From Corynebacterium jeikeium (GTDB lineage: Bacteria > Actinomycetota > Actinomycetes > Mycobacteriales > Mycobacteriaceae), in assembly GCA_003955985.1 (NCBI GenBank), contig CP033784.1:124001-188000 (forward strand): a DNA stretch of 64,000 nucleotides, written 5' to 3'. Below the pieces are notes generated by a model. That model had not been told where the DNA came from. It did no database searches and was given only the letters and a program-made list of their open reading frames with translations. Every line of letters begins with the position of its first letter. Positions within the stretch are counted from its first letter, which is position 1. Positions 7,506-47,364 of this stretch are shown here, piece by piece. Both the position numbers and the translations under genes were made by a program.

Positions 7506-10148
7506 TTAGTTCACCACTATGTTGCCGCGTGCCCCCATTTCGGCATGCACCATCTGGTGGTCGACAAAGCGGTACGTGCCTGGCTCCGGGAATTCGGCCT
7601 CAACATAACCACCCTGCGCGGCACCGAGGTCAAGGGCTTGGGCACCGCCCACGCCGTCGTCAAGCAAAAGCGCGCCCTCCTTGTACACGCGATGGAACTG
7701 CGTGCCGACGATATGGAAGCTCGTGCCCTTGTTGGGGCCGGCGGCAAGTACCCAGAAACGTACCGTCTCACCTGCGCGAATGCGAATTGGGTGGGTGAGA
7801 TACTGGTCGGGGTAGCCGTTGAACTTGTAGATATCGGGGTCCTCGGCCATGGTCTTGTCGGCGTCGGGGCTGTCCTCGCCCCAGTAGCTTTCCGACTGCA
7901 CCAGAAGAACCTCGTGGTCAACATCAGTGAGATTCGGTGGGTCGATGATGACGGCACCGTGCATACCGGCAGCGATGTGCATGGACATGGGCATGGTTGC
8001 GCAGTGGTACATCCAGATGCCCGCGCGGTCAGCACGGAAGCGGTACTCAAGCTTCTCACCAGGGGCGATGTCGCGCATTGGCTCGTCCGGCGAAACAATG
8101 CCGGCGTGAAAGTCGATGGAGTGACTCATGGTGCCGTCATTAATGAGCGTGACGACGAACTCGTCGCCCACCTTGCCGCGCAAAGTTGGCCCCAGCGGTT
8201 TGCCGTTGAATACCCAATGCTGCTGCTCGACGCCAGGGGCAGCGTAGCCGGTGAACTCGCTGGCTCGCAGCGTGACGTGGTGAACCGTGGCGTCCTCGGC
8301 GGGCGTCAACATTGGATTGATGGTGGGGGAGTCCGGACCGGGCTGTTCGCCGACATTCCCGAGTGCGCCTGGCGTTGCGTGGTCGGAGTGGCCGCTGTTC
8401 CCGGTGCGGTGTGAATGATTCGAGCCACCTGCATTGACCGTGAGCGTCATGCCCATCTGGCGGTGACCAGCAATGGTGCACCAGCCGTCAATGTCACCGG
8501 GAACAACCGGCACTTCAATGGTGGCGGAGTTGCCAGGGGCGACACGTCCGGTGTCCTCGCCGGTGGCCAAGCGCAGATCGTGGACCTGGGAATCAGCGTT
8601 GACCATGGTGATGACCAGTCGGTCGCCGGGGTTCGCCTCTATAACGTTCGGGGTATAGGTCATATCGTTGGCAGTAACCGTCACCTCGACGGTTTCTCCG
8701 GTGGGCGCAACATCGCTGGTGGTTTCAATGCTTCCCGTACCGCCACCGCCACCGCTCAGCGCAACGCCGACGGTTACTACCAGGCCCAATACAGCCAGAG
8801 CAGCGGTAGTTTGAGCACCGAGTCGACGTGCAGTTGCGTGCAGTTCGACCGGGTTCCGCGTTGCTTCCTTGTTGGCCCGTGCCTTCTGACTCTCTCTTAA
8901 CGCACCAATCTGAGCCTTCGCGGCACGGCCGACAAGTGGCAGATAAGACACCAAGGCAAGGGAGACCATTGCGGAGACCGCCACTTTGGTCCAGGAAGGC
9001 AGCGGCATCAGCCACAGTGCCAGACCAATATTGATGGTCGACCAGCGAAATGCGCCCGCGCGGTCAAGTTCCTTCATACCGGCAGAGACTGGGCCAGCAC
9101 CTCCGCCGATGGTGGCGGGCAAGAGTTGGCTCATCATGCCGATAAGCAACTGGGCGCCGAAACCGATTACCAGCGGCAGCGTGAGGGATGAGATTACGAA
9201 GCCGTCGTCAAGCGCCTTGACTGTGGCGACTGCGAGTGTGCCGATTAGCCAGACGACTGCAGCTGCAGCAGACAACGCCGGGTAGCTGAGGCGGTCGCGC
9301 GGGTCTTTAGCGACAGTCATGACGTTGTGTGCCCACGGGATGGCGGCTATGACCCAGCCGATAGTGATAATGCCAAGGCCGACGGAGTCCAACCAGTTGA
9401 AGCTGGTCAGTGCACCGATCGCGGTAATTGCGATACCTATGAGCTGTACTGCTAGTGCCAGCTTCGGGCGGGAATGCGGCGACATCCGGGTTCGCCACAG
9501 CGCTGGGAACATGGTGATGAGCGTGCCGCAGGCCGCGAGCCCGAGGAAGCCAATGAGGTTGACGGTTTCGTGTGCCAATAGGAGATCGTCGTGAAGCGCT
9601 TTGCCCTTAGGAGATGCGAGGATGGCGCCGAGTGCAGCGCCGATGGGCAGTAGGCATGCCGACGCGACGTAGTGTGCAACGGAGATGGCGAATGGCCGAT
9701 CGCGCTTCGCTACCAGGTCGCGTCCGAGGGAAAACGCATGCCATGCGACGGCGACGCCGACGACCGCCGCGCCGACGGTGGTCACTGGCCACCAGTCACC
9801 GAGCTTGCCGACGACCGTCGCGACAATACCTACGTTGAGCAGGTAAATATTTGCCAACTGAATCTTCCGATTGCCAACGGGCACGTCGATTTTCAGTAGC
9901 TTTTCGGTGAAGTGGCGGCCCCAGATGAGGATGGAGTTGGTGACGGCGCCGAGGGTAAAGAGATGCACCAACAGCCAACGGCCATCGGCGACGAAAGGGT
10001 GAATGAGTGCTGCCACAATGATGGAGGCGAACCACCAGCGCACTGGCATACCGGCCTTGCGATGCCAGGACATGCGGCGCTTCTTGCCAGGCTTAGTAGG
10101 CGGTTTGGTTGTGGGGGATTGGGGTTCTGGTGTGGCGTGCGACGACAT
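7506..10148 (-). CDS. Membrane-anchored NirK-like copper nitrite reductase / multicopper oxidase
   Basis: This 880-residue protein has three parts. Residues of about 30-430 form a polytopic membrane domain with roughly ten hydrophobic helices. A single cupredoxin domain of about 100 residues follows (DLRLATG; WCTIAGHRQMGM near its end). The C-terminal 330 residues match two-domain copper nitrite reductases: HSIDFH at about 676, WMYHCATMPMSMHIAAGM at about 713-730 with type-1 His-Cys-His-Met ligands, and later FHIVGTQFH and a VDHQMVH stretch where NirK carries its active-site His residues. NirK reduces nitrite to nitric oxide; the extra cupredoxin may feed electrons. TATTAT stands 6 bases before the ATG. 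No other denitrification gene is nearby, so nitrite as the real substrate is inferred. Confidence 0.82.
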   Translation of the reverse strand: MSSHATPEPQSPTTKPPTKPGKKRRMSWHRKAGMPVRWWFASIIVAALIHPFVADGRWLLVHLFTLGAVTNSILIWGRHFTEKLLKIDVPVGNRKIQLANIYLLNVGIVATVVGKLGDWWPVTTVGAAVVGVAVAWHAFSLGRDLVAKRDRPFAISVAHYVASACLLPIGAALGAILASPKGKALHDDLLLAHETVNLIGFLGLAACGTLITMFPALWRTRMSPHSRPKLALAVQLIGIAITAIGALTSFNWLDSVGLGIITIGWVIAAIPWAHNVMTVAKDPRDRLSYPALSAAAAVVWLIGTLAVATVKALDDGFVISSLTLPLVIGFGAQLLIGMMSQLLPATIGGGAGPVSAGMKELDRAGAFRWSTINIGLALWLMPLPSWTKVAVSAMVSLALVSYLPLVGRAAKAQIGALRESQKARANKEATRNPVELHATARRLGAQTTAALAVLGLVVTVGVALSGGGGGTGSIETTSDVAPTGETVEVTVTANDMTYTPNVIEANPGDRLVITMVNADSQVHDLRLATGEDTGRVAPGNSATIEVPVVPGDIDGWCTIAGHRQMGMTLTVNAGGSNHSHRTGNSGHSDHATPGALGNVGEQPGPDSPTINPMLTPAEDATVHHVTLRASEFTGYAAPGVEQQHWVFNGKPLGPTLRGKVGDEFVVTLINDGTMSHSIDFHAGIVSPDEPMRDIAPGEKLEYRFRADRAGIWMYHCATMPMSMHIAAGMHGAVIIDPPNLTDVDHEVLLVQSESYWGEDSPDADKTMAEDPDIYKFNGYPDQYLTHPIRIRAGETVRFWVLAAGPNKGTSFHIVGTQFHRVYKEGALLLDDGVGGAQALDLGAAQGGYVEAEFPEPGTYRFVDHQMVHAEMGARGNIVVN

Positions 10149-10724
10149 ATATCAATAATACGCATACTGGGTGCGCATTTAATATGGGCGCATGTAAGAG
10201 TGCTTTTATTTGGTCGGGTCTTCGCCGTTTTTGTGGGCCTGCCAGAACTGTGTGGTCTTCTGTGTCTGACCCATCCGGTTTTGAATCAGCATCAGGGTAG
10301 TAAGGAAGGGCTTCCGGGTGATGAAAGCGCGTGCCCGACGCGTTGATGATGTGCTCACGGGGAAGTGTAACCCTTTTGTCAAAAACGATTGTTTGAGTAT
10401 TCACGCAAATACTTCCTTGAATAAACATCTCAATAAAGAGGTGATTGTGCATTAATTGCAATCGTCAGGAAGTGGTTACGTTAGAAGCTAGTTTGTACAG
10501 CTAGTTAGATGAATGTAAACAGATTGAAGCTTCAGTAAACAGTTGGTGAAACGTTGTTTTACCAGGGAGAATGATGAGTGGTAAAGGTGGCTTTTTGGCT
10601 ACCCGAACGATGGGGTAGCCCTTTGTAGTAGGGGGCTGTAAATGTAGTTCATATCGCATAGTATGCCAAGCCTGTGGAACGCATTGTGCGTAAGAAAATT
10701 TAACCAGCAGTAAAAGGCATAAGA
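10149..10724. other. Long AT-rich intergenic region between divergent nirK-like and pglF-like genes
   Basis: About 575 bases without a convincing gene. It holds an inverted repeat AGTATT-6-AATACT at 10396-10413 and a hairpin GGCTACCC-8-GGGTAGCC at 10597-10620 followed by CTTTG. The second lies about 105 bases before the glycan locus and could be a leader hairpin or attenuator. The region is clearly richer in A and T than the flanking genes and is long enough to hold regulation for both directions or a small RNA. Confidence 0.4.
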
Positions 10725-12611
10725 ATGTTTATCCGAGACTGGAAGCAGCTCGCCTGGTGCGTATTTGACGTACTCGCCTGGCTGATTGCGCTGTCCGCCG
10801 CTAACGGAATCGTCCGCGGTGAATTGGTATCTTTCTCTGAAATATCAGGCACTAATTTTTTGGTTGTCGCTGTCGCCGTGGCCGTCATCGTCCTGCTCGG
10901 CCTGCTGCTCGGGGAGTACACCAACCCGCAACGCGTATGGCCCGGCAGTCGAACTGAAGATATTGTTCTGCTGAGCATCAGCATGGGCGGTGCTACCGCA
11001 GCCACTGGCTTGGCTCAAATCCTGAAGACCTTCCCGGAAATTGCGTGGTACGTTCCGTTCGCCGGTGGCTGTGTCGCAACTTTGGCAAGTATCTATACCC
11101 GCACTCTCGCTCGCTGGATTACCAACAACTTTGGCTCCCGTCAGACGGATGATCGCTTGATTGTTCTCGGTGCAGGCCGTCGCGCCAAGTTCTTTATTAA
11201 CAGTCTTACGGATTCCGGTATCTCCCGTGAGAACCGCTTCCACCTGGTTGGAATCGTCGATCCCAAAGAAAGCAGCGAGAGCCATATTTCTCGTATCCAT
11301 GGTCTCCGCGTGATTCGTGGAATTGATCAGCTGGGTGAGCTCGCATCGCGCACTTCGGCGCAGTCGGTCATCATTGCTACTGATGAGCCACTGTCCACTG
11401 AGTGCATCAACGTCCTCAACCACATTTGTGAGGAATCGTCCCTGCGCCTGCTCATTCTGCCGCCGGTGGAAGAGTACTCGCGCCACCGTGGTGCTGTCGC
11501 TACCTCGCAGGTGCGCGAAATTAACATCGCCGACCTCATTGGCCGTCAGCCTCTGCACCTGGATGAATCCAAGGTCGCTTCCATAATCCGCGGTAAGAAG
11601 GTGCTGGTCACCGGCGCTGGAGGTTCTATCGGTTCCGAAATCTGCCGACAGGTTCACCGCTTTGAGCCGGCAGAACTGATCATGCTGGATCGCGATGAGG
11701 GCGGCTTGCATGCCACGCAGCTGTCGCTGACGGGTTCGGCGCTTCTCGACGGCTCCGATACCGTCCTGGCTGATATCCGTGACGCGGAAATGCTGACGCA
11801 GATCTTCACCGAGCGCAAGCCCGATGTTGTCTACCATGCTGCAGCTCTCAAGCACCTGCCGCTGCTGGAGAGCTATCCCGCAGAAGCAGTGCAAACCAAT
11901 GTCATCGGAACTCAGAACGTCCTGGATGCAGCGGCTGCGGCCAACGTTTCAACCGTTATTAATATTTCCACGGACAAGGCTGCGAACCCGGCCTCGATTC
12001 TGGGTGAATCCAAGCGCGCTGCGGAACGTCTGACTGCGCACATGGGGAAAACTCACGAAGGTGTCTGGGCATCTGTCCGCTTCGGTAACGTGTTTGGCTC
12101 GCGCGGCTCGGTCATTACGACTTTCCAGCGTCAGATTGAAGAGGGCGGCCCGGTGACGGTGACGCATCCTGACGTTCAGCGCTACTTCATGACCATTCCG
12201 GAGGCATCGCAGCTGGTGCTGCAGGCTACCGTTATTGCAGAATCCGGTGAGACTCTGGTGCTGGAGATGGGTAAGCCGGTCAAGATTGCTGAGCTGGCGG
12301 AGAACCTGATCAGGCTCCATGACGCAGACGTAGAGATTGTCTACACGGGTCTTCGTGACGGTGAGAAGATCTCCGAGGATTTGGTTGATGACCGCGAGGT
12401 TCCCAAGATCGGTGATCGTCATCCGCTAATCACTGAGGTACGTGTTGAGCCGGAACGGCTGAATTCGCGGATTCTCCCGTGCACACATAATCACGATGCT
12501 GCACGTCGTTGGCTTGCAGAGCACGGTGGGGCGCAAAGCAGTATTGAGGCGCATCCCACCGGTGCACAATCACTTGCAACCGTTAGTGCGAAAGCAAAAA
12601 AGTTAGGATGA
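10725..12611 (+). CDS. pglF: Membrane UDP-GlcNAc 4,6-dehydratase, PglF/WbpM/CapD family
   Basis: The protein has about four N-terminal transmembrane helices (residues 10-125), a first Rossmann-like domain (VLGAGRRAKF near residue 148), then a short-chain dehydrogenase domain with GAGGSIGSEICRQ near residue 297. The catalytic region reads STDKAANPASILGESK: it keeps the Thr-Asp-Lys of 4,6-dehydratases, and a hydrophobic residue replaces the usual tyrosine, as in the long PglF/WbpM group. These enzymes make UDP-4-keto-6-deoxy-GlcNAc, the first step to bacillosamine or related sugars. It is the first gene of a tight seven-gene run reaching pglC. AAAGG lies about 10 bases before the start. Family certain; the exact product is inferred from the neighbouring PglE, PglD and PglC homologues. 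Confidence 0.85.
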   Translation: MFIRDWKQLAWCVFDVLAWLIALSAANGIVRGELVSFSEISGTNFLVVAVAVAVIVLLGLLLGEYTNPQRVWPGSRTEDIVLLSISMGGATAATGLAQILKTFPEIAWYVPFAGGCVATLASIYTRTLARWITNNFGSRQTDDRLIVLGAGRRAKFFINSLTDSGISRENRFHLVGIVDPKESSESHISRIHGLRVIRGIDQLGELASRTSAQSVIIATDEPLSTECINVLNHICEESSLRLLILPPVEEYSRHRGAVATSQVREINIADLIGRQPLHLDESKVASIIRGKKVLVTGAGGSIGSEICRQVHRFEPAELIMLDRDEGGLHATQLSLTGSALLDGSDTVLADIRDAEMLTQIFTERKPDVVYHAAALKHLPLLESYPAEAVQTNVIGTQNVLDAAAAANVSTVINISTDKAANPASILGESKRAAERLTAHMGKTHEGVWASVRFGNVFGSRGSVITTFQRQIEEGGPVTVTHPDVQRYFMTIPEASQLVLQATVIAESGETLVLEMGKPVKIAELAENLIRLHDADVEIVYTGLRDGEKISEDLVDDREVPKIGDRHPLITEVRVEPERLNSRILPCTHNHDAARRWLAEHGGAQSSIEAHPTGAQSLATVSAKAKKLG

Positions 12612-12620
12612 CTCCCCACC

Positions 12621-13865
12621 GTGACAACTACCAGCTCCTCTAACTCCGGGCAGCTGGCGCAAAGAGTTCGAACAGTTGCGACGATTTCGGCAGCTTCAGC
12701 GCTCGCCGCAGTCGTCGCCTTTGTGGTCAGTATTCTTTCCGCGCGAGTGCTGGGGCCCGCCGGTCGAGGCGAGGTCGCTACCGTTTTGCAGTTCGCCTAT
12801 ATTGTGGCGCCATTCGTCGGCTTTGGGGCCGATCGGCTTTTGCTGCGCCGCGATGATTACGACCACGGTCTCATTCCGAGTGGTTACGCCATGACCGTGG
12901 TCGCTCTGATTGCCTGCGCCATCGCAGGAGTCGTCTACGGACCGTGGACGGCAATGGCCGGCGTCGTCGCCTTGGTTACCGTGTCATTTTCCATGGTTCG
13001 TGCGATGGCTATCAGCCGCCATCGAGTGTCCTTCTTCGTCGCAGTATTCGTCGGCTTCCAGGGCTCAGTACTGCTGATTAGCGCTGCACTATATGTCGCC
13101 GGAGTCGAAGACTGGCGCTGGTGGGCTGCGGCCTATATCTTCCCGGCACTGCCACTGGCAATCTGGTCGCTAGCGAAGTCACGCAAACACACCGATTCTC
13201 GTGTTGGCGGAGTGGTAGAGACGGCTCGAACAAATGCCCCATTCATCGCATCGGGGCTGGGGCCGCTGACGACGACACGCTTGGGGCGCGTTTTACTGCC
13301 GGCGCTGGCCTCGCCGGCGTCGTTAGGTCTTTTCGTAGTCGTGGCGACGGCGACGGAACCGCTGTATTGGATCGCGCAGTCAGTCGCCGATCAGCGCACC
13401 AGCGACCAGAGGGGGCGCGAACTCACCCCGTCTCGTGTGCTCCGACACCTTGGCATAGTCACTGCAGCGTACGGCGCGCTTGGTGCGCTCGGTGGTATGG
13501 CACTCTACTTCCTCATCGTGCCGGTATTCGGCCATGAGTTTGAGCCTGCTCGGGAGTTGGTGCTGCCACTGACTATCGCGGCCGTGGTGCTCGGCTGCTA
13601 CCGACACCTGTGCGGTGAAATTCTCGGCAGCGACAATCCCCGTCGAATTGGCCGAGTGGAGCTCATTTCCGCCGTTATCGCTGTCATTTGTTACCCGATT
13701 GGCATTCTTCTCGGAGACGCCCTCGGTCTCGCGTGGACCAGCGCAGTTGTCTACTTTGCAGCAGCCGTTGTTGCCGCAGTGGCGTTGATGCAGCCGAGCA
13801 GAGGCCCGAAAAATCCATCAACCACCAACGAAGAACTTCCCGTCGACGTAATCGAGGAAAGCTAA
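12621..13865 (+). CDS. Polysaccharide flippase (Wzx/MurJ-like MOP superfamily)
   Basis: A 414-residue protein made almost entirely of hydrophobic helices (about 12), with the SAxxxxGPAGRGE-type signature near residues 47-58 typical of O-antigen and teichuronic acid flippases. It should move an undecaprenyl-linked oligosaccharide across the membrane. The GTG start lies 9 bases after the pglF-like stop, with no obvious ribosome-binding site, so translation may be coupled. Its place between the sugar-biosynthesis and glycosyltransferase genes supports a Wzx role. Confidence 0.8.
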   Translation: MTTTSSSNSGQLAQRVRTVATISAASALAAVVAFVVSILSARVLGPAGRGEVATVLQFAYIVAPFVGFGADRLLLRRDDYDHGLIPSGYAMTVVALIACAIAGVVYGPWTAMAGVVALVTVSFSMVRAMAISRHRVSFFVAVFVGFQGSVLLISAALYVAGVEDWRWWAAAYIFPALPLAIWSLAKSRKHTDSRVGGVVETARTNAPFIASGLGPLTTTRLGRVLLPALASPASLGLFVVVATATEPLYWIAQSVADQRTSDQRGRELTPSRVLRHLGIVTAAYGALGALGGMALYFLIVPVFGHEFEPARELVLPLTIAAVVLGCYRHLCGEILGSDNPRRIGRVELISAVIAVICYPIGILLGDALGLAWTSAVVYFAAAVVAAVALMQPSRGPKNPSTTNEELPVDVIEES

Positions 13866-13868
13866 ACA

Positions 13869-15059
13869 ATGCGAATCACTTATATCCACCAGCACTTTGT
13901 TCTCCCCGGTGAGCCGGGTGGTTCCCGACCCTACGAGTTTGCCCGCCGAATGGCCGCTGCAGGCCACGAGGTGACAATGATCTGTGGTCGCGATGAGGCC
14001 ATGGATAAAACGGTCGATGGCATCCACGTGCGTCGTTTAGCGATTCCGTACCGCAATGAAATGTCGAAGCGCGAGCGCATCGTCAGTTTCTTCAACTTCC
14101 TGGTGCGCGCCTCCGCGGTTGCTGCCCGTGTGCCTGCCGACGTGATTTACGCGTCCTCGACTCCGCTGACTGTGGCGGTTCCGGGAATTGTGGCGAAGTT
14201 TACCCAGCGTGCGCCGTTGGTGGCGGAGATCCGTGACCTGTGGCCAGAGGTGCCAATCAAGTTGGGCTACCTCAATAATCCGGTGGCGATTTTCCTGGCC
14301 AAGCAACTGGAGAAGGCATTTTATGCGGCATCGAGCGAGGTCGTGGCGCTGTCGCCGTCGATGGCCGATGGCGTCAAAGAGGTAGCTCCGAAGAAGTGCG
14401 TGACTGTCATTCCGAATGCGTCGGACTTTGAGCGTTTTGATGTCCCGGTCGAGCAGCGTGCAGCTTTCCGTAAGGAGCAGGGCTGGGGCGATGACGTGGT
14501 GGCGGTCTACGCTGGTGGTTTTGGCATGTCCTACCAGCTGGAGTGGCTTGTGGATTTGGCGGCGCAGCTGCGTCGTGATGGCGTGGAGAATGTGCGCTTT
14601 GTCCTGCTGGGGCAGGGAAGCGACTCGGATGCGTTGTACCAGCGCGCTGAGAACGCTGGCCTCGATGCCGATGCGATGTTCCTCGGCCGTCAGCCGAAGG
14701 AAGATGTCGCCAAGTACGTGTCTGCCGCCGATATCGCGCTATCGCCGCTGCGTGATGACCCCTGCCTGGAGGGCAATTCCCTGAACAAGGTCTTCGATGC
14801 CATGGCCGCATCGCGTCCGGTGGTGTTCAACCACGGTGGCTGGCTGGAGGAAGCCGCAACCGAGCACGATGCCGGTTGGCGTCTCTCGCGCGATATTCCG
14901 ACCGCGGCCAAGCGATTCGCTGAGATCATCTCCGACCGCGATGAGATGCGCGCAGCGGGACAGCGAAATCGCGAACTGGGTGAGAAGCGTTTTGCCCGTG
15001 ACAGCCTGTACTCCCAGCTCATCGAGGTACTCAACCGCGTCCGAAAGGTGCAGAAGTAA
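13869..15059 (+). CDS. GT4 family glycosyltransferase (WbuB/WcaI-like)
   Basis: A GT-B fold retaining glycosyltransferase of 396 residues. The N-terminus MRITYIHQHFVLPGEPGGSR has the GGS/R pattern of the WbuB-like GT4 group, and AEIRDLWPE near residue 118 is another hallmark. The C-terminal donor domain has VAVYAGGFG and a conserved acidic ALSPLRDD-CLEGNSLNK region. It probably adds the second sugar to the lipid-linked bacillosamine-type sugar. GGAAAG stands before the ATG, three bases after the flippase stop, and it overlaps the next gene by one base. The donor sugar cannot be told from sequence. Confidence 0.85.
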   Translation: MRITYIHQHFVLPGEPGGSRPYEFARRMAAAGHEVTMICGRDEAMDKTVDGIHVRRLAIPYRNEMSKRERIVSFFNFLVRASAVAARVPADVIYASSTPLTVAVPGIVAKFTQRAPLVAEIRDLWPEVPIKLGYLNNPVAIFLAKQLEKAFYAASSEVVALSPSMADGVKEVAPKKCVTVIPNASDFERFDVPVEQRAAFRKEQGWGDDVVAVYAGGFGMSYQLEWLVDLAAQLRRDGVENVRFVLLGQGSDSDALYQRAENAGLDADAMFLGRQPKEDVAKYVSAADIALSPLRDDPCLEGNSLNKVFDAMAASRPVVFNHGGWLEEAATEHDAGWRLSRDIPTAAKRFAEIISDRDEMRAAGQRNRELGEKRFARDSLYSQLIEVLNRVRKVQK

Positions 15060-16237
15060 TGACTAACGCTGACGCTAACAAGCCCAATGAGCGGATCTTT
15101 CTTTCGCTCGCGACAGTCACCGAAGCAGAAGAACAGGCTGTCGTTCGCGCACTCCACTCTGGTTGGGTGGCTCCGTTGGGACCCGAGGTAGACGCGTTTG
15201 AAGCGGAGATTGCCAAGCGCTGCGGTGTTGAGCACGCGCTCGCGCTGTCTTCCGGCACCGCTGGCCTGCACTTGGCGCTGCTCGCGCTGGGGATCGGTGA
15301 AGGTGACTACATTCCGGTTTCCACCATGACCTTCGCGGCCACGACCAACGCCATTGCTTACGTTGGTGCTACGCCGGTGTTCGTCGATGCCGCAGAGGAC
15401 GGAAACATCGACCCTGAGCTGCTGCTCCGCACCGTCGATGAGCTGCTTGCCGAGGGCAAGAGCGTTCCCGCCGTGATGATTGTGGACCTCTTTGGCCGCT
15501 GCGCCGATTACCCGGCCTTCGCGCCACGCCTGGAAGAACTCGGCATCGCGCTCATCGAGGACGCCGCCGAGGCGCTCGGTGCCAGCGTCCATGGTCAGCC
15601 GGCCGGCAGTTTCGGCCGTGCCGCCGCGCTGTCTTTCAACGGCAACAAAATCATGACCACCTCCGGCGGTGGCATGCTGCTGTCCGATGATGCCGATCTC
15701 ATCGCTCGCGCGCGCTACCTGTCCACCCAGGCGCGTCAGCCCGTCGCTTGGTACGAGCACACCGAAATCGGCTACAACTACCGCCTGTCCAATCTGCTCG
15801 CCGCACTGGGGCGGGCGCAGCACTCGCGTCTGGACGGCATGATTGCTCGCCGCCGCCAGATTCGCGATGCATACCTAGATTTGCTCGCCTCGCTTGACGA
15901 CGATGCCCCTGGTAAAGGTACCCGCTTGCTCTCTGACTCCGACGAGCGTTTCACCGAGAACTGCTGGTTGACCTCAATTGTGCTGCCGCAGGAGGCCGTC
16001 GATAAGGGTGTGCTGACCCCGGACAGCGTGATTGCAGCACTTGGTGAGGCCAGCATTGAGGCTCGTCACCTGTGGAAGCCGATGCACCTGCAGCCGGTAT
16101 ACGAGGGCGCACGAGCCAGCATCAACGGCACCGCTGAGAATCTTTTCTCCCGCGGCATTACTCTTCCTAGTGGTCCGGCGCTGGACGATGACGACGTCGC
16201 GCGGGTGATAGGTGTTTTGAAGGAAGTGCTGGGATGA
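15059..16237 (+). CDS. pglE: PLP aminotransferase, PglE-like (DegT/DnrJ/EryC1/StrS family)
   Basis: The sequence follows C. jejuni PglE closely in recalled blocks: SGWVAPLGPEVDAFE near the N-terminus, IEDAAEALG, SFNGNKIMTTSGGGML with the PLP-binding lysine, YLSTQAR, GYNYRLSN, ARHLWKPMH and GITLPSG. PglE converts UDP-4-keto-6-deoxy-GlcNAc to UDP-4-amino-GlcNAc using glutamate. Length 392 is typical. It overlaps the upstream GT4 gene by one base and the downstream Wzy-like gene by 4 (ATGA), so the operon is translationally coupled. Family certain; the specific PglE role is strongly suggested by the shared motifs. Confidence 0.9.
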   Translation: MTNADANKPNERIFLSLATVTEAEEQAVVRALHSGWVAPLGPEVDAFEAEIAKRCGVEHALALSSGTAGLHLALLALGIGEGDYIPVSTMTFAATTNAIAYVGATPVFVDAAEDGNIDPELLLRTVDELLAEGKSVPAVMIVDLFGRCADYPAFAPRLEELGIALIEDAAEALGASVHGQPAGSFGRAAALSFNGNKIMTTSGGGMLLSDDADLIARARYLSTQARQPVAWYEHTEIGYNYRLSNLLAALGRAQHSRLDGMIARRRQIRDAYLDLLASLDDDAPGKGTRLLSDSDERFTENCWLTSIVLPQEAVDKGVLTPDSVIAALGEASIEARHLWKPMHLQPVYEGARASINGTAENLFSRGITLPSGPALDDDDVARVIGVLKEVLG

Positions 16238-17790
16238 CTCCTACAGAGGTAGCTGGAGAAACTGTAAAACAGCGAAAACCAATACTGCAGTCGCTGTTTA
16301 TTGTGGTGGCCGCAGGAATGTTTGCTGGTGTCCTCTACGTTGGCGACACGACGATGAAGGACGTCTCTTCGGCGCTTCCTGATCTCTCTCTTGCATTGCC
16401 GATTTTGGTGGTTGTTGCAATCCTTACCGCCTTCGGCACCCCAGAAGCGCAGCGCCAGAGTTGGCTGAATGCGATGAAAGGCGCTGGCAATGTAAAGCAG
16501 TGGCCGATGGCCGTGTGGGCATTAGTGGCTTTCTATGCCTGGTTGTTCTGGATGATGCTGTCCGGACTGTGGGCCCCCGAAGCTGCCGAAGTTGCTCCTG
16601 TCGTTACTGCGTTGATAACGCTTGGGCTCATCGCCACGATGTCAGCAATACTGTTCTATTTGCATCCTCAGGCACTGGTATGGCTGTGGTTAGCAGTAGC
16701 CATTTGCTCGCTTATTTTTCTCTACGGTGGCATTACTGGTCCGAAATATGTCGGGCGCATGACGGCGTTCGGCGGTGGACCGAATGTCTTTGCCCGTTTC
16801 ATGCTGTACGGCATCGCGGCAGCTGTGTTTTTCATGCTGTGGCGTAAGTTCATGTGGGCAGTTCTCTTGTTTGCTGCACCATTTGCTTACGGTCTCGTTG
16901 CGTCGGGAAGCCGCGGTGTACTGGTTGCTACCACCGTGGTAGTCCTCTTTACCGCAATAGCTGTGTTTTTTCACTGGGGTTGGAAGTGGGCGACTGTTTT
17001 TTACGTCGCAGTCGCCGCAGCGGTCGCGTACGGATACTCGCGGTTCATCGCAGGTACCGAGATTGAAGAATACTTTAAGACGCGCTTTATCCAATTGACC
17101 TTCGAAAAAGAACATGATTCCGGACGCGGTTATCTCCATGATGAAGCTTTCCGAATCATGAGTGAACACCGCATCTTTGGTGGAGGCCTGCATAGCTTCG
17201 TTGTGCTGTCGACACCGAGGTCTTCACGTCCACTGGAGCATCCGCACAATATCTTCTACACAGTCGGATCTGAAGCGGGTGTCATAGGTATCGGTCTGTT
17301 TGTGATTGTGCTGGTTGTGTTGGCAATCGCCTGTCGCCACCTATTCAAGTTTCTTCAAGCTGGTCTGACCGCAGCCGTGGCATTCTCGGTTCTTGTGGCA
17401 CAGGTTTTTTCCGGCTACTACTACGATTCCCGTTCGCTATGGCTATTTGGCTTTGCAGCAGCATTTGCGATGCTGAGCCTACGGCGCAAGGACGCAGCAT
17501 CGGCAGAACCAGAGCTGGAGCCGCAACCAGAACCCGCAGCCGAGCCCGAACCAGTCATGGTCACCGATACCGCGGGGCCGGTTGTGCCGGAGCCGGAGCC
17601 AGCGGTGGCCGTCGTCAAGCAAAGTGCGCCTGACAACAAGAATGACAACAGGAAGCTGCGCGTTGCGGCAGCGTCGTTTGCCGCGGCCGGTGTAGTGGGT
17701 GCGGTTGGTTGGCTGGTCAGGAACCGTTCCAATGAGGAAGTCGATGCGCGTGCCGAAAAGCTTCTGCGCGAAATGTTCAACGAAAAGTAG
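16234..17790 (+). CDS. O-antigen ligase/polymerase-like membrane protein (Wzy_C family)
   Basis: A 518-residue protein with about ten to twelve transmembrane helices. A large external loop contains FGGGLHSFV and EHPHNIFYTVGSEAGVIG, the His-containing loop pattern of the Wzy_C/WaaL/PglL superfamily. Such proteins either polymerise repeat units, ligate glycan to an acceptor, or transfer it to protein. After the last helix comes an unusual cytoplasmic tail rich in Pro-Glu-Ala repeats (about residues 425-470) and a further hydrophobic segment (AAASFAAAGVVGAVGWLV). Because the locus has only one glycosyltransferase besides PglC, the role as polymerase or as O-oligosaccharyltransferase is open. Confidence 0.75.
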   Translation: MTPTEVAGETVKQRKPILQSLFIVVAAGMFAGVLYVGDTTMKDVSSALPDLSLALPILVVVAILTAFGTPEAQRQSWLNAMKGAGNVKQWPMAVWALVAFYAWLFWMMLSGLWAPEAAEVAPVVTALITLGLIATMSAILFYLHPQALVWLWLAVAICSLIFLYGGITGPKYVGRMTAFGGGPNVFARFMLYGIAAAVFFMLWRKFMWAVLLFAAPFAYGLVASGSRGVLVATTVVVLFTAIAVFFHWGWKWATVFYVAVAAAVAYGYSRFIAGTEIEEYFKTRFIQLTFEKEHDSGRGYLHDEAFRIMSEHRIFGGGLHSFVVLSTPRSSRPLEHPHNIFYTVGSEAGVIGIGLFVIVLVVLAIACRHLFKFLQAGLTAAVAFSVLVAQVFSGYYYDSRSLWLFGFAAAFAMLSLRRKDAASAEPELEPQPEPAAEPEPVMVTDTAGPVVPEPEPAVAVVKQSAPDNKNDNRKLRVAAASFAAAGVVGAVGWLVRNRSNEEVDARAEKLLREMFNEK

Positions 17791-17800
17791 GAGATGACCA

Positions 17801-18466
17801 ATGGATTCACTGAGCATCCGCGCGCAACGGGTAATTAAGCGTGGCGTCGACATCGCGGCATCTGCAGCGGGCTTGATTGTGCTGTCGCCAGTTATGGGCG
17901 CTACGGCTCTGGCAGTGCGACTTTCCATGGGAAAGCCAGTCCTATTCCGCCAGGAACGTCCGGGGCAGGATGGTGAGCCGTTTAATATCCTCAAGTTTCG
18001 GACGATGCACCACGTCAATCCGGCAAAGGGGCTTGTCGACGATGCGTCCCGCCTCACCGAGGTGGGAAAATTCCTTCGGTCCACAAGCTTGGACGAACTC
18101 CCGGAGCTCTTTAACGTTCTGCGTGGCGACATGAGCCTCGTTGGCCCGCGCCCGCTGCGCATGAAGTACCTAGAGCGCTATTCGCCGCGCCAGGCACGCC
18201 GCCATGAGGTGCCACCGGGAATTACGGGGCTTGCCCAGGTCTCGGGCCGCAATGGCATCACCTGGGAAGAACGTTTCGAGTACGACGTGCAGTACGTGGA
18301 TAATTGGTCGCTACTGCTCGATGCAAAGATCCTGCTCGACACAATATTGGTGGTGCTCAAGCGTGAAGGGATCTCGGAAGAAGGGCAAGTGACCATGACC
18401 GAGTTCACCGGTTCGTCGGATGAGAATTCGGCGGAGAAGGACGTCTCGGCTAGCGCAGGTTCTTAA
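17801..18466 (+). CDS. pglC: Undecaprenyl-phosphate phosphosugar transferase, PglC-like
   Basis: A small monotopic phosphoglycosyltransferase of 221 residues. It has the reentrant hydrophobic segment near residues 18-42, RQERPGQDGEPFNILKFRTM, the catalytic Asp-Glu in SLDELPELFNVLRGDMSLVGPRP, and PGITGLAQVSGRN. The C-terminal block EGISEEGQVTMTEFTG mirrors the end of C. jejuni PglC, which transfers phospho-di-N-acetylbacillosamine to undecaprenyl phosphate. GGAG lies 8 bases before the ATG. It converges on the pglD-like gene and overlaps it by 17 bases, tail to tail. Confidence 0.9.
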   Translation: MDSLSIRAQRVIKRGVDIAASAAGLIVLSPVMGATALAVRLSMGKPVLFRQERPGQDGEPFNILKFRTMHHVNPAKGLVDDASRLTEVGKFLRSTSLDELPELFNVLRGDMSLVGPRPLRMKYLERYSPRQARRHEVPPGITGLAQVSGRNGITWEERFEYDVQYVDNWSLLLDAKILLDTILVVLKREGISEEGQVTMTEFTGSSDENSAEKDVSASAGS

Positions 18467-19145
18467 TCACACTTGCAGGAACACCGGCGACAACGGTGTA
18501 GTCATCGACATCGCTAGTAACTGCGGCTCCGGATCCGATGTACGCTCCCTCGCCAACGGTGAGGCCGGGGTTGATTACGGAGTTGGCTCCTAGCGTGCAG
18601 GCCTCGCCAAGCGTGACAAAGCCCGACACGGCATTGAGCGGGAAGATTGTGCAGTAGTCCCGCAGCACCGCATCGTGGCCAATCGTGACATTCATATTGA
18701 TTTGGGCGTGCTTGCCTACCTCAATATTGCAGGTCAGGCGCGCTCCGGGGCAGATGACCGTGCCCTCGCCGAGCGAGACCAGCGCGCCAATGCTGGTGTC
18801 TGGGTGGACCAGAGTCGCAGGCACGAGCCCTTCGGTATCTGCGCGTTGCGCAATCGAACGTCGAGCAGCGCCGCTGCCGATTGCGACTGTGTAGTAGACC
18901 CCCTCGGGTAAGTCCGCGAGGATTTCGGTTTTGCCCAAGAGTTGCACACCCATTTTGTGGAAAAAGGTCATATCTGGGGTGCCATCATCAATAATGCCTA
19001 GGATTTCCCACTGCGGTGGTAGGCCGTTGGCTGCTGCGTAGTCGTTGATGTCCTTGATGAAGCTGACCACGTTTCGCCCAAAACCACCAGCGCCGACGAT
19101 GACAATCTTTTCGGTCGTCGTGTTGTTAATCCACTGCTTTGGCAT
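18450..19145 (-). CDS. pglD: Sugar N/O-acetyltransferase, PglD/NeuD-like
   Basis: An N-terminal Rossmann-like domain (IVIVGAGGFGRNVV) is followed by a left-handed beta-helix with hexapeptide repeats and a closing VAGVPASVIKNLR, as in NeuD and PglD. The conserved His of the PglD active site matches IGHDAVL. PglD acetylates UDP-4-amino sugar to UDP-di-N-acetylbacillosamine with acetyl-CoA. The frame is open as far as 19259 but overlaps the HPP gene there, so the ATG at 19145 (or 19154) is preferred. It is transcribed opposite to the other glycan genes, its last 17 bases overlapping pglC. With pglF, pglE and pglC it completes the bacillosamine set. Confidence 0.85.
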   Translation of the reverse strand: MPKQWINNTTTEKIVIVGAGGFGRNVVSFIKDINDYAAANGLPPQWEILGIIDDGTPDMTFFHKMGVQLLGKTEILADLPEGVYYTVAIGSGAARRSIAQRADTEGLVPATLVHPDTSIGALVSLGEGTVICPGARLTCNIEVGKHAQINMNVTIGHDAVLRDYCTIFPLNAVSGFVTLGEACTLGANSVINPGLTVGEGAYIGSGAAVTSDVDDYTVVAGVPASVIKNLR

Positions 19146-19203
19146 GAGTGTCATTATCCCACTGATAGCCGTATTCAGCCGGAGTGCGTGACCCCGAATC
19201 CAC

Positions 19204-19731
19204 CTACCACCAGTATGTGGGATAGCGGAGGCCGCGCAGTCGATTTGCGAGGATGCCAAGCATCACGATCATGATCGACGAAGCGAAAATGAAGCCTATG
19301 AAGCGGAAATCGTTGGCGAGCCCATGACCGTGTGGCATCAGCACAGTGACCATAGCGGTAGCGGTGGCAGGGGAGTGCGCCGCGCGAGCAAGAAGCATGA
19401 GCGCGAAGGCGACGCCGGCGGCAACCGCTGCAGCAATGATGGTCGAACCCAACATGTGCAGAATTGCGATGCCAGTCGTGCAGCCGATGAGGTGTCCGAC
19501 CACGACATTTCGTGGCTGAGCCAGAGGCAAGTTGGGCGCACCGACAATAAGCGCCATGGCAGCGCCAATAGGAGGCAGAAATAGCAGGTCAGAGACAGAA
19601 GTTGAGATGAGTGCCAGGGTCATCAGCGGCAGGCTCACGGCTACCGAGGCGGCGATAACATGGCGTAGCGGAGGGCGAGGTGGCGCTTCGCTGGCGATCC
19701 GGGGCCACTTCGGAGACCGTGAATTAGACAT
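19204..19731 (-). CDS. HPP family integral membrane protein
   Basis: A 175-residue protein with about five hydrophobic helices. The family signature region reads HSPATATA here in place of the usual HPPAGATA, and a FLPPIGAAMALI segment precedes it. HPP proteins are small membrane proteins; some plant members move nitrite, but bacterial roles are mostly unknown. TAACAT stands 7 bases before the ATG, suggesting a leaderless message of its own. It lies upstream of the pglD-like gene on the same strand and could share transcription with it. Confidence 0.75.
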   Translation of the reverse strand: MSNSRSPKWPRIASEAPPRPPLRHVIAASVAVSLPLMTLALISTSVSDLLFLPPIGAAMALIVGAPNLPLAQPRNVVVGHLIGCTTGIAILHMLGSTIIAAAVAAGVAFALMLLARAAHSPATATAMVTVLMPHGHGLANDFRFIGFIFASSIMIVMLGILANRLRGLRYPTYWW

Positions 19732-19895
19732 GAGAACGATGTTAGGGTGTGCTGCCTCATCCGCGTCGCGGTTCGAGGTTTTTATTGAAATAGAAGTTTA
19801 AATGGGGTGGCGTCCAGGTCTCCCAAGCCTCCAAACCCGAACCAGACCCGAACCAAGCTCCGACCATTTTCACCGGGTATGACACACTTAAGGAC

Positions 19896-20189
19896 ATGGA
19901 GCCTATCGATGTCGCAATCCGGGATGAGTCCATCCGTCTCGGGCAATTCCTGAAGTTGGCAAACCTGGTGGAAACGGGCGGTCTGGCCAAGGAACTCATT
20001 GCCGAGGGCCAGGTCAGCGTGAACGGTGAGGTCGACACTCGCCGTGGCAAGGTGCTGCGTCCAGGGGACGTCGTCTCTGTTGCCGGTATGTCGGCACGCG
20101 TGGCCACCGCCGATGAAGTCGATGATGACTACTTTGATGAGGCCACCGCCGACGATGACTTTGATCCTGAAAAGTGGAGGAACTTGTAA
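19896..20189 (+). CDS. S4-domain RNA-binding protein (YbcJ-like)
   Basis: A 97-residue protein made of one S4 fold: IRLGQFLKLANLVETGG, AKELIAEGQVSVNGEV and a RRGKVLRPGDVV segment. Small stand-alone S4 proteins of this type bind structured RNA. The tail is strongly acidic. AAGGA lies just before the ATG. The VOC-fold gene begins 3 bases after its stop, so the two form an operon. The cellular target is unknown. Confidence 0.85.
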   Translation: MEPIDVAIRDESIRLGQFLKLANLVETGGLAKELIAEGQVSVNGEVDTRRGKVLRPGDVVSVAGMSARVATADEVDDDYFDEATADDDFDPEKWRNL

Positions 20190-20192
20190 CTC

Positions 20193-21074
20193 ATGCCCGC
20201 ATTTCCCGCCGAATTTGGCATGCCCCTGCGCGTAGATCTGCTCTCCGCCGCACCGCGTAAGACCGAGCGCTTCTACCGCGGCGTTCTTGGGTGGGCTTAT
20301 CGCAATACCGCGCCAATCCATGAGGATGCCCGCGAGGCATCCGCTGGTCGCCGCGTTGCCATGCTGTCCGGAATGCCGGTGTCGGTGCTGCTTGAGGCCG
20401 ATAAGGACGCTGAGGATGCCTTCGTCAACCAGTGGCGCGTGAATTTCCATGTCGACTCCGCCGCTGGTGCCGTCGAGAAGGCGCGTGAGCTCGGCGCCGA
20501 GGTCTTCCAGGAACCGACCCCGCTTGTCGACGGATCCACGATGGCCGTCGTTTCCGACCCCGCCGGTGGCCTCATTGGGCTGCTGGAACAGCCGGGTGAG
20601 CAGGCCTTTATCGCAGCGGGCGAGCCCGGCACCCCGGTGTGGTTCGAGCTGGTCGCAGGCCCGGAGGAGACCTTTGAGCAGGTCGCGGACTTCTACCACA
20701 ACTTCTTTGGCTGGGAAATCGCAGTGCGCAACAAGAATGAGCACGGCACTTTCGCAGTTGCGATGGAAGACGGGGCGCCGTTCGCTGGCTTGGTAGCCAG
20801 CTCGGTTGCTGCACAGACCGATGCGGCAGATAAGAGCTTCGTTGGCTGGCTGGCCTACCTTGGCGTGGAGAACATCGACACCGCTGTCGCCAAGGCTGAG
20901 GAACTGGGCGGTTCCGTGCTCGTTGCCCCGCAGGCTACCGAGTTCGGTCCGCTGGCAACTGTGCAGGATCCATGTGGTGCGGCAGTTGTGCTCTGCGAGG
21001 TGCCGCTGCCACCGGAAGAAGATATCCGCGAGTCGGACCCACTGGAAGGCATTGACCTCAGCCAGTTCCAGTAG
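20193..21074 (+). CDS. Tandem VOC (glyoxalase/bleomycin-resistance fold) protein
   Basis: 293 residues with two vicinal-oxygen-chelate modules, about residues 1-130 and 140-275. Each shows the F-Y-x-x-x-L/F-G-W pattern (FYRGVLGWAY; FYHNFFGWEI) and ends in a VSDPAGG or VQDPCGA turn followed by a Glu. These proteins bind metals or sequester or convert small molecules; substrates vary widely. It follows the S4 gene directly. No specific activity can be assigned. Confidence 0.8.
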   Translation: MPAFPAEFGMPLRVDLLSAAPRKTERFYRGVLGWAYRNTAPIHEDAREASAGRRVAMLSGMPVSVLLEADKDAEDAFVNQWRVNFHVDSAAGAVEKARELGAEVFQEPTPLVDGSTMAVVSDPAGGLIGLLEQPGEQAFIAAGEPGTPVWFELVAGPEETFEQVADFYHNFFGWEIAVRNKNEHGTFAVAMEDGAPFAGLVASSVAAQTDAADKSFVGWLAYLGVENIDTAVAKAEELGGSVLVAPQATEFGPLATVQDPCGAAVVLCEVPLPPEEDIRESDPLEGIDLSQFQ

Positions 21075-36752: not shown

Positions 36753-38786
36753 TTACCAGATATTCACGCGCTCATTCGGCTCACGCCACATGCCGTCCCC
36801 CGCTGAAGTGCCGAAGGCCTCATGGAACTCATCGATGTTGCTGGCAATGACGTTGCAGCGGAACTCCGCTGGCGAGTGCGGGTCAATGGCAAGCAGCTGG
36901 CGTGCAAACTCCGGACGAATCTTGGAACGCCAGACCAGTGCCCACTGCTTGAACAGGTCACGGTAGGTCTCGGGGGTGTCCTCCAACCCGAGTTCCTTTC
37001 CGCGGGCAGCGAGGAAACGGCGGAAAGCGACGACAGCAATACCAAGCCCGCCCAAGTCACCGATGTTCTCTCCCAGGGTGAAGCGACCGTTGACACCGGG
37101 CAGGTCAGCGCCCTCCTCGGCCTGCTCGCGCAGAGCCTGCGGAACCAGGCCCTCGTACTGGTCCACCAGTGCGGAGGTCAGCTTCTCAAAAGCTGCGCGA
37201 TCCTCATCGGTCCACCACTGGTGAAGGTTGCCGTGACCGTCATACTGCGAGCCCTGGTCATCAAAACCATGACCAATCTCGTGACCAATAACCGCACCGA
37301 TGCCACCGAAGTTCTCCGCCGGGGAAGCGTCCGGTGAGAAGAACGGCGACTGCAAAATCGCAGCCGGGAACGTGATGTCATTGACCACCGGATTGTAGAA
37401 GGCATTGACCGTCTGCGGAGTGCCATGCCACTCATCACGATTGGCCGGGGTTCCCAGCTTTGCCACCTCATAATCATGCGCAAAAGCGCTGGCAGCGCGA
37501 GCATTGTCCATCAGTGAATCCCCGAGCTCCATCGCCGAGTAATCACGCCAACGCTCCGGGTAGCCAATCTTGGCCTTAAACAGCGACAGCTTCTCCAGCG
37601 CCCGCTCCTGTGTCGCCTTCGTCATCCACGGCAGCTTCGAAATTCGCTCCCGGTACGCCGCCAGCAGGTAGTCCACCAGTTCCAGGACCTGCTCCTTGTA
37701 CTCCGGAGGGAAGTGCTTTTCCGCATACAGCTTGCCGACGTCATGTCCAACCGCCCCGTCCGCAAAGGCAACACCACGCTTCCAGCGTGCACGCTGCTCG
37801 GTCGAACCCTGCAGGGTGCGGCCGTAGAAGTTAAAGCTCTCCGCAGAGAAGTCATCCGACAGGTAGGCGGCGCGCTGGTGGAGGACGCGCCACAGTGCCC
37901 ACAGGCGCAGATCTGCCAGGTCAGTGTCCTGCCACAACTTGCTCAAGTGCTCGAAGTACGACGGCATCATCACCACGATGGTGTCGATGGCAGTCTGGTT
38001 CGTCTCATTGACACCGGTGGCCGCGAGCCACTCCGCGACCGGGAAGCCGGTGGGGAGGTCAGAAATGGCCGTCTTGTTATAGGTCTTCAGTGCATCGCGG
38101 GTATCGACCACATTCCAGTGACCAGCGGCAATACGCTTTTCAAAAGCCACGATGCGCGCCGCCGCAGCGGCCGGGTCCACCAACTCGAATGCAGCAAGCG
38201 CGGTGGAGAGTTCCCCCGCGCCGTCGTCATGCGAGGAGAGAAGCTTCAACATAGCGGCAACATGCTGCTCATAGGCAGCGAGGGTGTCGGCGTGACCAGG
38301 CTCGCGGTAGTAAGCCTCATCCGGGAGGCCGAGGCCCGACTGCAACAGATAGAGAGCATCCAGGTCCGAGCCGGAATCCTTCTCTACCCAGTACCCGAGC
38401 GCACCACCGACACCGAGGCGGTCGAGGCGGCCGAGCGCCAACGCCAGCTCATGCGCGTTCTCGGCGGAGGCAATCATTTCTAGATCCTGCGCGAGAGGAG
38501 CTGCGCCGGCGTTATTAATAGCGGCTTCGTCCATAAAAGAGTTGTACAAGCGAGCGACGCGGGAATTCTGATCCGCATCGGCGGCAGTGGTGATGAGCTC
38601 GCGGACGTTTTCCTCCGCCTCATCCCTCAGCTTGTAAAAGGCGCCATCGATGGGGCGGTCAGCCGGGATGACGTGATTACTAACCCACTCACCGTTGGTG
38701 GCCAAGTAGAGGTCATCCTGTGGGCGAGGAGTCGTTGAGAGTTGGGACGTTGCGGACTGGGTCTCAGTATTAGTGCTATTTGTCAT
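36753..38786 (-). CDS. pepO: M13 family zinc metallopeptidase (neprilysin/PepO-like)
   Basis: A 677-residue endopeptidase. The substrate-binding NAFYNP and the zinc motif GHEIGHGFDDQGSQYDG are present, with the third ligand in the GENIGDLGG segment; the protein ends with VNIW, typical of the family's conserved C-terminal Trp. No signal peptide is seen, so it is probably cytoplasmic, cutting small peptides. TAGACT lies 6 bases before the ATG without a ribosome-binding site, suggesting a leaderless message. Confidence 0.93.
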   Translation of the reverse strand: MTNSTNTETQSATSQLSTTPRPQDDLYLATNGEWVSNHVIPADRPIDGAFYKLRDEAEENVRELITTAADADQNSRVARLYNSFMDEAAINNAGAAPLAQDLEMIASAENAHELALALGRLDRLGVGGALGYWVEKDSGSDLDALYLLQSGLGLPDEAYYREPGHADTLAAYEQHVAAMLKLLSSHDDGAGELSTALAAFELVDPAAAAARIVAFEKRIAAGHWNVVDTRDALKTYNKTAISDLPTGFPVAEWLAATGVNETNQTAIDTIVVMMPSYFEHLSKLWQDTDLADLRLWALWRVLHQRAAYLSDDFSAESFNFYGRTLQGSTEQRARWKRGVAFADGAVGHDVGKLYAEKHFPPEYKEQVLELVDYLLAAYRERISKLPWMTKATQERALEKLSLFKAKIGYPERWRDYSAMELGDSLMDNARAASAFAHDYEVAKLGTPANRDEWHGTPQTVNAFYNPVVNDITFPAAILQSPFFSPDASPAENFGGIGAVIGHEIGHGFDDQGSQYDGHGNLHQWWTDEDRAAFEKLTSALVDQYEGLVPQALREQAEEGADLPGVNGRFTLGENIGDLGGLGIAVVAFRRFLAARGKELGLEDTPETYRDLFKQWALVWRSKIRPEFARQLLAIDPHSPAEFRCNVIASNIDEFHEAFGTSAGDGMWREPNERVNIW

Positions 38787-38892
38787 GCCGCCAGTCTAGG
38801 GGCAAGGGCGGATTGAAGCTGTGACTGGAGGGGCGGGATAAGTTTAGGATTACGAATGGGGCTAAAGTGATTTAGGGGGTAAGGTGCAAACC

Positions 38893-39819: not shown

Positions 39820-39845
39820 CAGTGTGTTGTGGGGTCTGGGGCAGG

Positions 39846-40904: not shown

Positions 40905-40914
40905 GCTCTTTCGC

Positions 40915-47339: not shown

Positions 47340-47364
47340 TGGGGCTTAAATCCTCTCGGTTCTT

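What the first reader, a model, noticed from the sequence alone, without database searches (positions are those of the whole stretch)
10725..19145. Complete bacillosamine-type (pglF/E/D/C) glycan locus in an actinobacterium
Seen: four genes whose motifs match the C. jejuni PglF, PglE, PglD and PglC blocks (STDKA...ILGESK; SFNGNKIMTTSGGGML; IGHDAVL; EEGQVTMTEFTG), with a Wzx flippase, one GT4 transferase and a Wzy/ligase-like protein. Known: these four enzymes make undecaprenyl-PP-di-N-acetylbacillosamine for protein glycosylation in Campylobacter. Inferred: this Corynebacterium-like cell builds an extra glycan, perhaps a capsule or glycoprotein, beside arabinogalactan. I know of no well-described counterpart in corynebacteria.
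Basis: partly seen in the sequence, partly recalled or inferred. Interest (0 to 1): 0.78.

Follow-up and report, generated by a model that had tools for sequence, protein, structure and literature searches.

The report
Bacillosamine-type polysaccharide locus with swappable polymerase
A Corynebacterium that seems to have lost its waxy outer layer carries a compact gene set that probably builds a surface polysaccharide starting from a rare amino sugar, and close relatives carry an unrelated chain-building protein at the same spot.

Summary
Seven genes at 10725-19145 encode PglF-, Wzx-, GT4-, PglE-, Wzy_C-, PglC- and, convergently, PglD-like proteins. The host falls in the Corynebacterium amycolatum group and has no Pks13, so it should lack mycolic acids. 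The locus is best read as a Wzx/Wzy surface polysaccharide begun with UDP-diNAcBac or a close relative, like Bacillus subtilis EpsCNM/L (PMC10653937), not Campylobacter N-glycosylation: no STT3 was found. A similar PglC occurs in 16 of 201 Corynebacterium genomes; this gene order was found in 7. Sister genomes hold two unrelated polymerase bodies at the same place, sharing one C-terminal tail: of 36 tail-bearing proteins found, 4 have body A and 32 body B, with no detectable similarity between bodies. Body B matches no Pfam family. This exchange points to a polymer that varies between strains. Against exact diNAcBac specificity: PglC lacks the GLLP loop reported for diNAcBac enzymes; none of the 49 rows of its actinobacterial clade has it in register. 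Sugar, polymer and anchoring are inferred.

The parts
10725..12611 (+). pglF-like membrane-bound UDP-GlcNAc 4,6-dehydratase (628 aa; Polysacc_synt_2)
   Evidence: Pfam 333.5 bits; best solved relative WlaL (recalled as PglF), E 7e-73
12621..13865 (+). wzx-like flippase (414 aa)
   Evidence: Polysacc_synt E 3e-4, 20.7 bits, below Pfam cut-off; position; relatives at the same place in the fetched loci
13869..15059 (+). GT4 glycosyltransferase (396 aa), the only glycosyltransferase in the cluster besides PglC
   Evidence: Glycos_transf_1 and Glyco_trans_4_4; found in 9 of 201 Corynebacterium genomes at E <= 1e-60
15059..16237 (+). pglE-like PLP sugar aminotransferase (392 aa); the only full-length DegT-family match in the genome
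   Evidence: Pfam 294 bits; best solved relative 1o61, E 3e-71; the other five DegT matches are partial and weak (E 5.5e-8 or worse), though over the family's cut-off
16234..17790 (+). wzy-like polymerase, body A (518 aa; Wzy_C / O-antigen ligase family)
   Evidence: Wzy_C 56 bits; only Wzy_C match in the genome
17515..17790 (+). C-terminal tail of the polymerase (residues about 428-518): Pro/Glu-rich linker, weakly hydrophobic stretch, charged end; shared with body-B proteins of relatives
16239..17521 (+). stretch replaced as a block in L112 and L115 (body exchange); alignable sequence stops at 16238 and resumes at 17544 (L112) or 17522 (L115)
17801..18466 (+). pglC-like small monotopic phosphoglycosyl transferase (221 aa); only PF02397 match in the genome
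18450..19145 (-). pglD-like hexapeptide acetyltransferase (231 aa from ATG; an upstream TTG at 19259 would give 269 aa), convergent with pglC
   Evidence: NeuD/PglB/VioB subfamily above cut-off; PglD_N and Hexapep domains; VioB best solved relative

Best explanation
The locus makes a surface polysaccharide by the Wzx/Wzy route. PglF, PglE and PglD turn UDP-GlcNAc into UDP-N,N'-diacetylbacillosamine or a close 2,4-diamino-2,4,6-trideoxy sugar. PglC places its phosphate ester on the polyprenyl carrier, the GT4 adds the next sugar, Wzx flips the unit and the Wzy-like protein joins units. The polymer is then released or attached, possibly by one of the two LCP proteins of the genome. The polymerase body is exchanged between strains while the other genes and the polymerase tail stay, so strains probably make polymers with different linkages. 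Shown: the genes, their families, conserved order and the exchange. Inferred: each reaction, the exact sugar, the polymer and its attachment.
For: Enzyme families matched. PglE groups with 1o61 (recalled as C. jejuni PglE) apart from perosamine synthase and 7b0m, 100/99 support, midpoint root. B. subtilis EpsCNM/EpsL carries out this chemistry for an exopolysaccharide (PMC10653937: abstract and passages). Wzx-like and Wzy_C proteins lie in the same cluster. The gene order is kept in 6 genomes, own included, and in G171 with pglD 3.2 kb further on. Two unrelated polymerase bodies at one site with sharp edges. No STT3 and no NeuB found; two LCP proteins; one PGT of this family; one Wzy_C.
Against: PglC lacks the GLLP loop motif reported for diNAcBac-using enzymes. 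No Wzz-family protein found in the genome, although many Wzy systems have one. Only one GT4, so a repeat built by this locus alone would have two sugars. PF04932 also covers O-glycan ligases (recalled), so polymerase is not proven. The Wzx match is below Pfam's cut-off. Low-confidence models of both bodies gave nothing usable. pglF is interrupted in the assemblies of 2 of the 7 cluster-bearing genomes.
Confidence: 0.62

Rival explanations
1. General O-glycosylation as in Neisseria: the Wzy_C protein is an oligosaccharyltransferase that moves a short bacillosamine-led glycan to surface proteins.
For: PF04932 includes protein O-glycan ligases (recalled); one GT4 fits a disaccharide; no Wzz found; only one Wzy_C protein, so no separate polymerase of that family.
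Against: The gene is replaced by an unrelated body in relatives while the rest is kept, which fits a polymerase better than a ligase with fixed protein targets.
Confidence: 0.17
2. Same kind of polysaccharide, but the first sugar is not diNAcBac: another acyl group, a free 4-amine, or the galacto isomer.
For: GLLP loop absent from the window PglC; motif in register in 0 of 49 rows of its actinobacterial clade against 12 of 27 other rows, and the clade's loop is mostly shorter. The PglD-like protein is nearer VioB than PglD.
Against: PglE and PglF are nearest Campylobacter Pgl enzymes among solved structures; PglC keeps the DE dyad, the PRP motif and the C-terminal Phe.
Confidence: 0.16
3. Campylobacter-type N-glycosylation.
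For: The same four enzyme families.
Against: No STT3/PglB found in the genome (its control set has no bacterial PglB); a Wzx-like protein rather than a PglK-type ABC flippase in the cluster.
Confidence: 0.01
4. A decaying locus no longer making product in some strains.
For: pglF interrupted in the assemblies of G098 and G153.
Against: All seven genes are open in the window and in L113; the cluster proteins of L112-L114 are 93-99% identical to the window's outside the exchanged body.
Confidence: 0.04

Closest known systems
Bacillus subtilis eps pathway, EpsC/EpsN/EpsM/EpsL (PMC10653937, abstract and passages)
   Same: Dehydratase, aminotransferase, acetyltransferase and small PGT that begin an exopolysaccharide with diNAcBac; a GT4 acts next.
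   Different: Other host phylum; pglD convergent; one GT4 in the cluster; no Wzz found in the genome; GLLP loop motif absent from PglC; polymerase exchanged between strains. The EpsL sequence itself was not compared here.
Campylobacter jejuni pgl N-glycosylation
   Same: PglF, PglE, PglD and PglC families.
   Different: No STT3/PglB found; Wzx-like and Wzy_C proteins instead.
Actinoplanes missouriensis wps-3 cluster (PMC13390465, abstract, section 5 and passages)
   Same: Six Actinoplanes/Paractinoplanes loci (L039, L042, L043, L054, L056, L069) have relatives of pglE, gt4, wzx and wzy in the order described for wps-3 (DegT, GT4, Wzz, Wzx, Wzy); gt4 40-42% identical. That these loci are wps-3 is inferred from order; A. 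missouriensis itself was not searched.
   Different: No pglF, pglC or pglD relative at E <= 1e-8 in those six loci. Deleting wps-3 left sporangia normal.
Corynebacterium glutamicum cg0419-cg0438 wzx/wzy/wzz region (PMC7305114, passages)
   Same: Predicted Wzx/Wzy cluster in the genus; loss of cg0424 and cg0420 lowered mannose and arabinose.
   Different: Has wzz; linked to mannan and arabinomannan. Its genes were not compared in sequence here.

Membership tests
UDP-diNAcBac biosynthesis (PglF/E/D type) | Three enzymes of the right families together | tested here: met
   PglD only at subfamily level, and no NCBIfam equivalog cut-off reached by PglF or PglE
UDP-diNAcBac biosynthesis (PglF/E/D type) | Product is UDP-N,N'-diacetylbacillosamine | not testable with these tools
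   needs enzyme assay
diNAcBac-specific small PGT (PglC) | Catalytic DE dyad and PRP uridine motif | tested here: met
   SLDELPELFN and GPRPL align with C. concisus PglC; the motifs are named in PMC10653937 (passage)
diNAcBac-specific small PGT (PglC) | GLLP motif in the extended loop (PMC10942596, passage) | tested here: not met
   window loop AKGLVDDASRL against ANGELLPDDQRL; in register in 0 of 49 clade rows. So the protein is called PglC-like
diNAcBac-specific small PGT (PglC) | Aromatic box with C-terminal Phe | tested here: inconclusive
   C-terminal Phe present (TEFTG); the other box residues were not known from a held paper
Campylobacter N-glycosylation | STT3/PglB oligosaccharyltransferase | tested here: not met
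   0 matches in own genome. The 14-genome control rings only in 4 archaea, so no bacterial PglB served as control
Wzx/Wzy-dependent polysaccharide | PGT, flippase and Wzy in one cluster | tested here: met
   the Wzx match is below Pfam cut-off
Wzx/Wzy-dependent polysaccharide | Wzz co-polymerase | tested here: not met
   PF02706: 0 matches in own genome, control rings in 8 of 14 including C. glutamicum. Not every Wzy system has one (recalled)
Neisseria PglL O-glycosylation | Wzy_C protein that glycosylates proteins | not testable with these tools
   PF04932 cannot tell polymerase from ligase
Legionaminic/sialic-type acid synthesis | NeuB synthase | tested here: not met
   PF03102: 0 matches in own genome, control rings in 9 of 14

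The most novel reading that the evidence does not exclude
In mycolate-less corynebacteria this polymer is a main outer coat, and it varies between strains by whole exchange of the polymerase body. The fixed C-terminal tail is a docking module that lets two unrelated polymerases, one of them an undescribed family, work in one assembly line without Wzz.
Probability: 0.15. Interest if true: 0.78.

Novelty: new variant of a known kind. Interest (0 to 1): 0.52.

Why it matters
It gives a testable candidate for the surface coat of corynebacteria that lack mycolic acids. It would extend bacillosamine-primed polysaccharides to Actinobacteria, where the PglC-like enzymes of this clade lack the loop used to predict the sugar elsewhere. 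It also exposes a polymerase exchange with an unannotated polymerase-like family that the sources call hypothetical or 'procyclic acidic repetitive family protein'.

Tried and rejected
N-glycosylation: no STT3 found in the genome. Sialic-type acids: no NeuB found. A known regulatory RNA before the cluster: at Rfam's gathering scores only the tRNA was found in the whole window. Promoter and terminator scans of 10100-20300 stayed within the spread of shuffles (3 against a mean of 4.4; 12 against 10.8). Structure prediction: body B with tail mean pLDDT 44.8, body A 56.1; a Foldseek search with the body A model gave no match at E <= 0.001, so neither fold is claimed. Distant kinship of bodies A and B: BLASTP best E 2.2, hhalign probability 0.3% with shallow profiles. 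Solved relatives of the Wzy_C protein: none (best E 2.3). Short simple repeats that could cause slippage: none found in 10101-19300 of the window by the pattern used; the interrupted relatives were not scanned. A link between the locus and mycolate loss across the genus: it rests on one clade. 6 of 11 genomes of at least 90% completeness without a strong Pks13 match have the cluster; the other 5 lack the GT4 at E <= 1e-60; and G171 has both cluster and Pks13. Of the 19 genomes under the Pks13 cut-off, these 11 were counted; set aside were two less complete ones (G077, G118), the partial case G145, and five with long partial matches (G016, G053, G088, G091, G112). The C. amycolatum polysaccharide paper search was too loose (18,141 papers at three of five terms, 12 listed) to say much.
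Full report
What is there. Seven genes run from 10725 to 19145: pglF-like, wzx-like, GT4, pglE-like, Wzy_C and pglC-like on the plus strand, and pglD-like on the minus strand with its end overlapping pglC by 17 bases. Pfam and NCBIfam place them in the expected families, though no NCBIfam equivalog cut-off is reached. Among solved structures, the best relatives are C. concisus PglC for pglC, 1o61 (recalled as C. jejuni PglE) for pglE and WlaL (recalled as PglF) for pglF. The acetyltransferase is closest to VioB, so 'PglD' holds only at subfamily level. The Wzx match is weak (20.7 bits, below cut-off).

Host. PglC searches place the window with the C. amycolatum group. G098 and G056 have contigs of the same lengths as records named C. 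amycolatum and C. lactis, and their PglCs are 94% and 79% identical to the window's. That these are the same records is inferred from the lengths. A locus labelled C. vitaeruminis 1285_CVIT (L002) also falls in this group. Both C. amycolatum and C. lactis are reported to lack mycolic acids and the fadD32-pks13-accD4 operon (PMC8733736 passages; PMC9709149 passages and section 16). The own genome gives no Pks13 match better than E 1e-12, while 182 of 201 genus members pass the curated cut-off. Arabinogalactan genes are kept: emb, aftA and glfT2 lie in the window.

How common it is. Of 201 Corynebacterium genomes (own included), 57 have a PglC match at E <= 1e-30; in 16 the identity is 56% or more. 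I fetched larger stretches for 17 genomes: the other 15 of those 16, and two more, G172 and G085. The seven-gene order is present in the own genome, G101, G034, G098, G153 and G056. G171 has the first six genes in order, with pglD 3.2 kb further on. The GT4 is found in 9 of 201: these seven, G172 (on another contig than its PGT) and G085, which has relatives of pglF, pglE, wzx (24%), a PGT (47%) and the GT4 in another arrangement without a pglD match. All four pgl genes are present, at E <= 1e-8, in 33 of the 80, several loci being cut short by contig ends. Of the 80, only L002 has the four with wzx and wzy as well.

Phylogeny. In a tree of 96 PglE rows, 94 rows including 1o61 stand apart from perosamine synthase and 7b0m (100/99; midpoint root). 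The window's row is in an 8-row corynebacterial group with G171 and G029 (100/99), inside a 17-row clade with Intrasporangiaceae and relatives (100/99). Seven other corynebacterial PglEs sit in a Propionibacteriaceae-rich clade and one with Microbacterium, so the module entered the genus more than once, or was lost often. In the PglC tree (77 rows, bootstrap not settled) 49 actinobacterial rows form a clade (95/83), and C. concisus PglC lies outside it without firm placement.

Sugar. PMC10942596 (passages) says that PGTs using diNAcBac share a GLLP loop motif and an aromatic box with a C-terminal Phe; the original paper was not held. The window protein keeps the DE dyad, PRP and the C-terminal Phe, but its loop reads AKGLVDDASRL where C. 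concisus has ANGELLPDDQRL. Counting 76 rows, LLP occurs in 12 of 27 rows outside the actinobacterial clade; two of these 12, L013 and L014, are actinobacterial by title and on long branches. In the clade it occurs in 3 of 49, each directly after the Met and so in another register; in register it is 0 of 49. Either this clade reads the same sugar with another loop, or the sugar differs slightly. My reading therefore says diNAcBac or a close relative.

Polymerase exchange. G034 (L113) and G098 (L114) have the window's polymerase body A; G101 (L112), G153 (L115) and G056 (L116) have an unrelated body B at the same place. Between the window and L112 the DNA aligns at 95% up to 16238, the end of pglE, and again at 94% from 17544; no alignment at E <= 1e-10 lies between. 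The part from about 17515 encodes a tail of about 90 residues: a Pro/Glu-rich linker, a weakly hydrophobic stretch and a charged end. A search with the tail alone found 36 proteins at E <= 0.01 among 2096 candidates; 4 have body A (one a 284-residue piece) and 32 have body B, most of the latter 68-69% identical to L112's body. P0121 (body A) and P0123 (body B) end in an identical stretch of 89 residues; the window's own protein shares at most 17 final residues exactly with a body-B protein. In L116 the tail is diverged but of the same make-up, and in L118 (G171) it is absent. Body B matches no Pfam family; only its tail gives sub-threshold matches to an acidic-repeat family. A search with body B found 35 proteins, query included, from a capped candidate list: 34 at 59% identity or more, and P0159 at 41%. 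A and B show no detectable kinship, although both profiles are shallow. The simplest cause is recombination with edges in pglE and in the tail; a docking role for the tail is my speculation. That body B is a polymerase is inferred from its place and its multi-helix sequence.

Mechanism. UDP-GlcNAc is dehydrated (PglF), aminated (PglE) and acylated (PglD). PglC primes the polyprenyl carrier, the GT4 extends, Wzx flips and the Wzy-like protein polymerises. In the genome the searches found one PGT of this family, one Wzy_C, two LCP proteins, no Wzz, no STT3 and no NeuB. In B. subtilis the same four activities begin an exopolysaccharide, and Campylobacter PglC can replace EpsL (PMC10653937, abstract and passages). 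Protein O-glycosylation stays the main rival.

Literature. Searches for bacillosamine with Corynebacterium, for corynebacterial exopolysaccharide with wzx and a mixed search listed no paper whose title or abstract start concerns this locus; a C. amycolatum surface-polysaccharide search was too loose to count. I saw listings, and inside only the papers cited. The C. amycolatum pan-genome paper mentions one capsule-related gene in a figure legend, and I could not tell whether it belongs here.

Verdict. A real, coherent locus of a known kind, with three unusual points: a host without the mycolate machinery, an exchanged polymerase body with a shared tail, and a PglC-like enzyme without the expected loop.

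Noticed in passing
window 36753-53436: Peptidase M13 gene and arabinogalactan genes (emb 40915-44358, aftA 44446-46467, a FAD-binding oxidoreductase 47365-48912, glfT2 51514-53436) although the genome has no strong Pks13 match.
   Followed up: partly
L114 (G098) and L115 (G153), pglF: pglF is interrupted in both assemblies: a change of frame near codon 417 in L114 and an in-frame stop near codon 473 in L115. Could be assembly error, loss or variation.
   Followed up: partly
L117 (G116) and L125 (G029): pglC and pglD relatives are convergent here too, as in the window, in genomes without the full cluster.
   Followed up: no
L002 / G034: Record labelled Corynebacterium vitaeruminis 1285_CVIT falls with the C. 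amycolatum group and has no Pks13 match; the label may be wrong.
   Followed up: no
window 7506-10148: 880-residue protein with a hydrophobic N-terminal part joined to cupredoxin and multicopper-oxidase (nitrite-reductase-like, recalled) domains next to gltBD-like genes.
   Followed up: no
database proteins P0128, P0131, P0139, P0144, P0146: Body-B proteins are named 'procyclic acidic repetitive family protein' or hypothetical, apparently because of the Pro/Glu-rich tail.
   Followed up: yes
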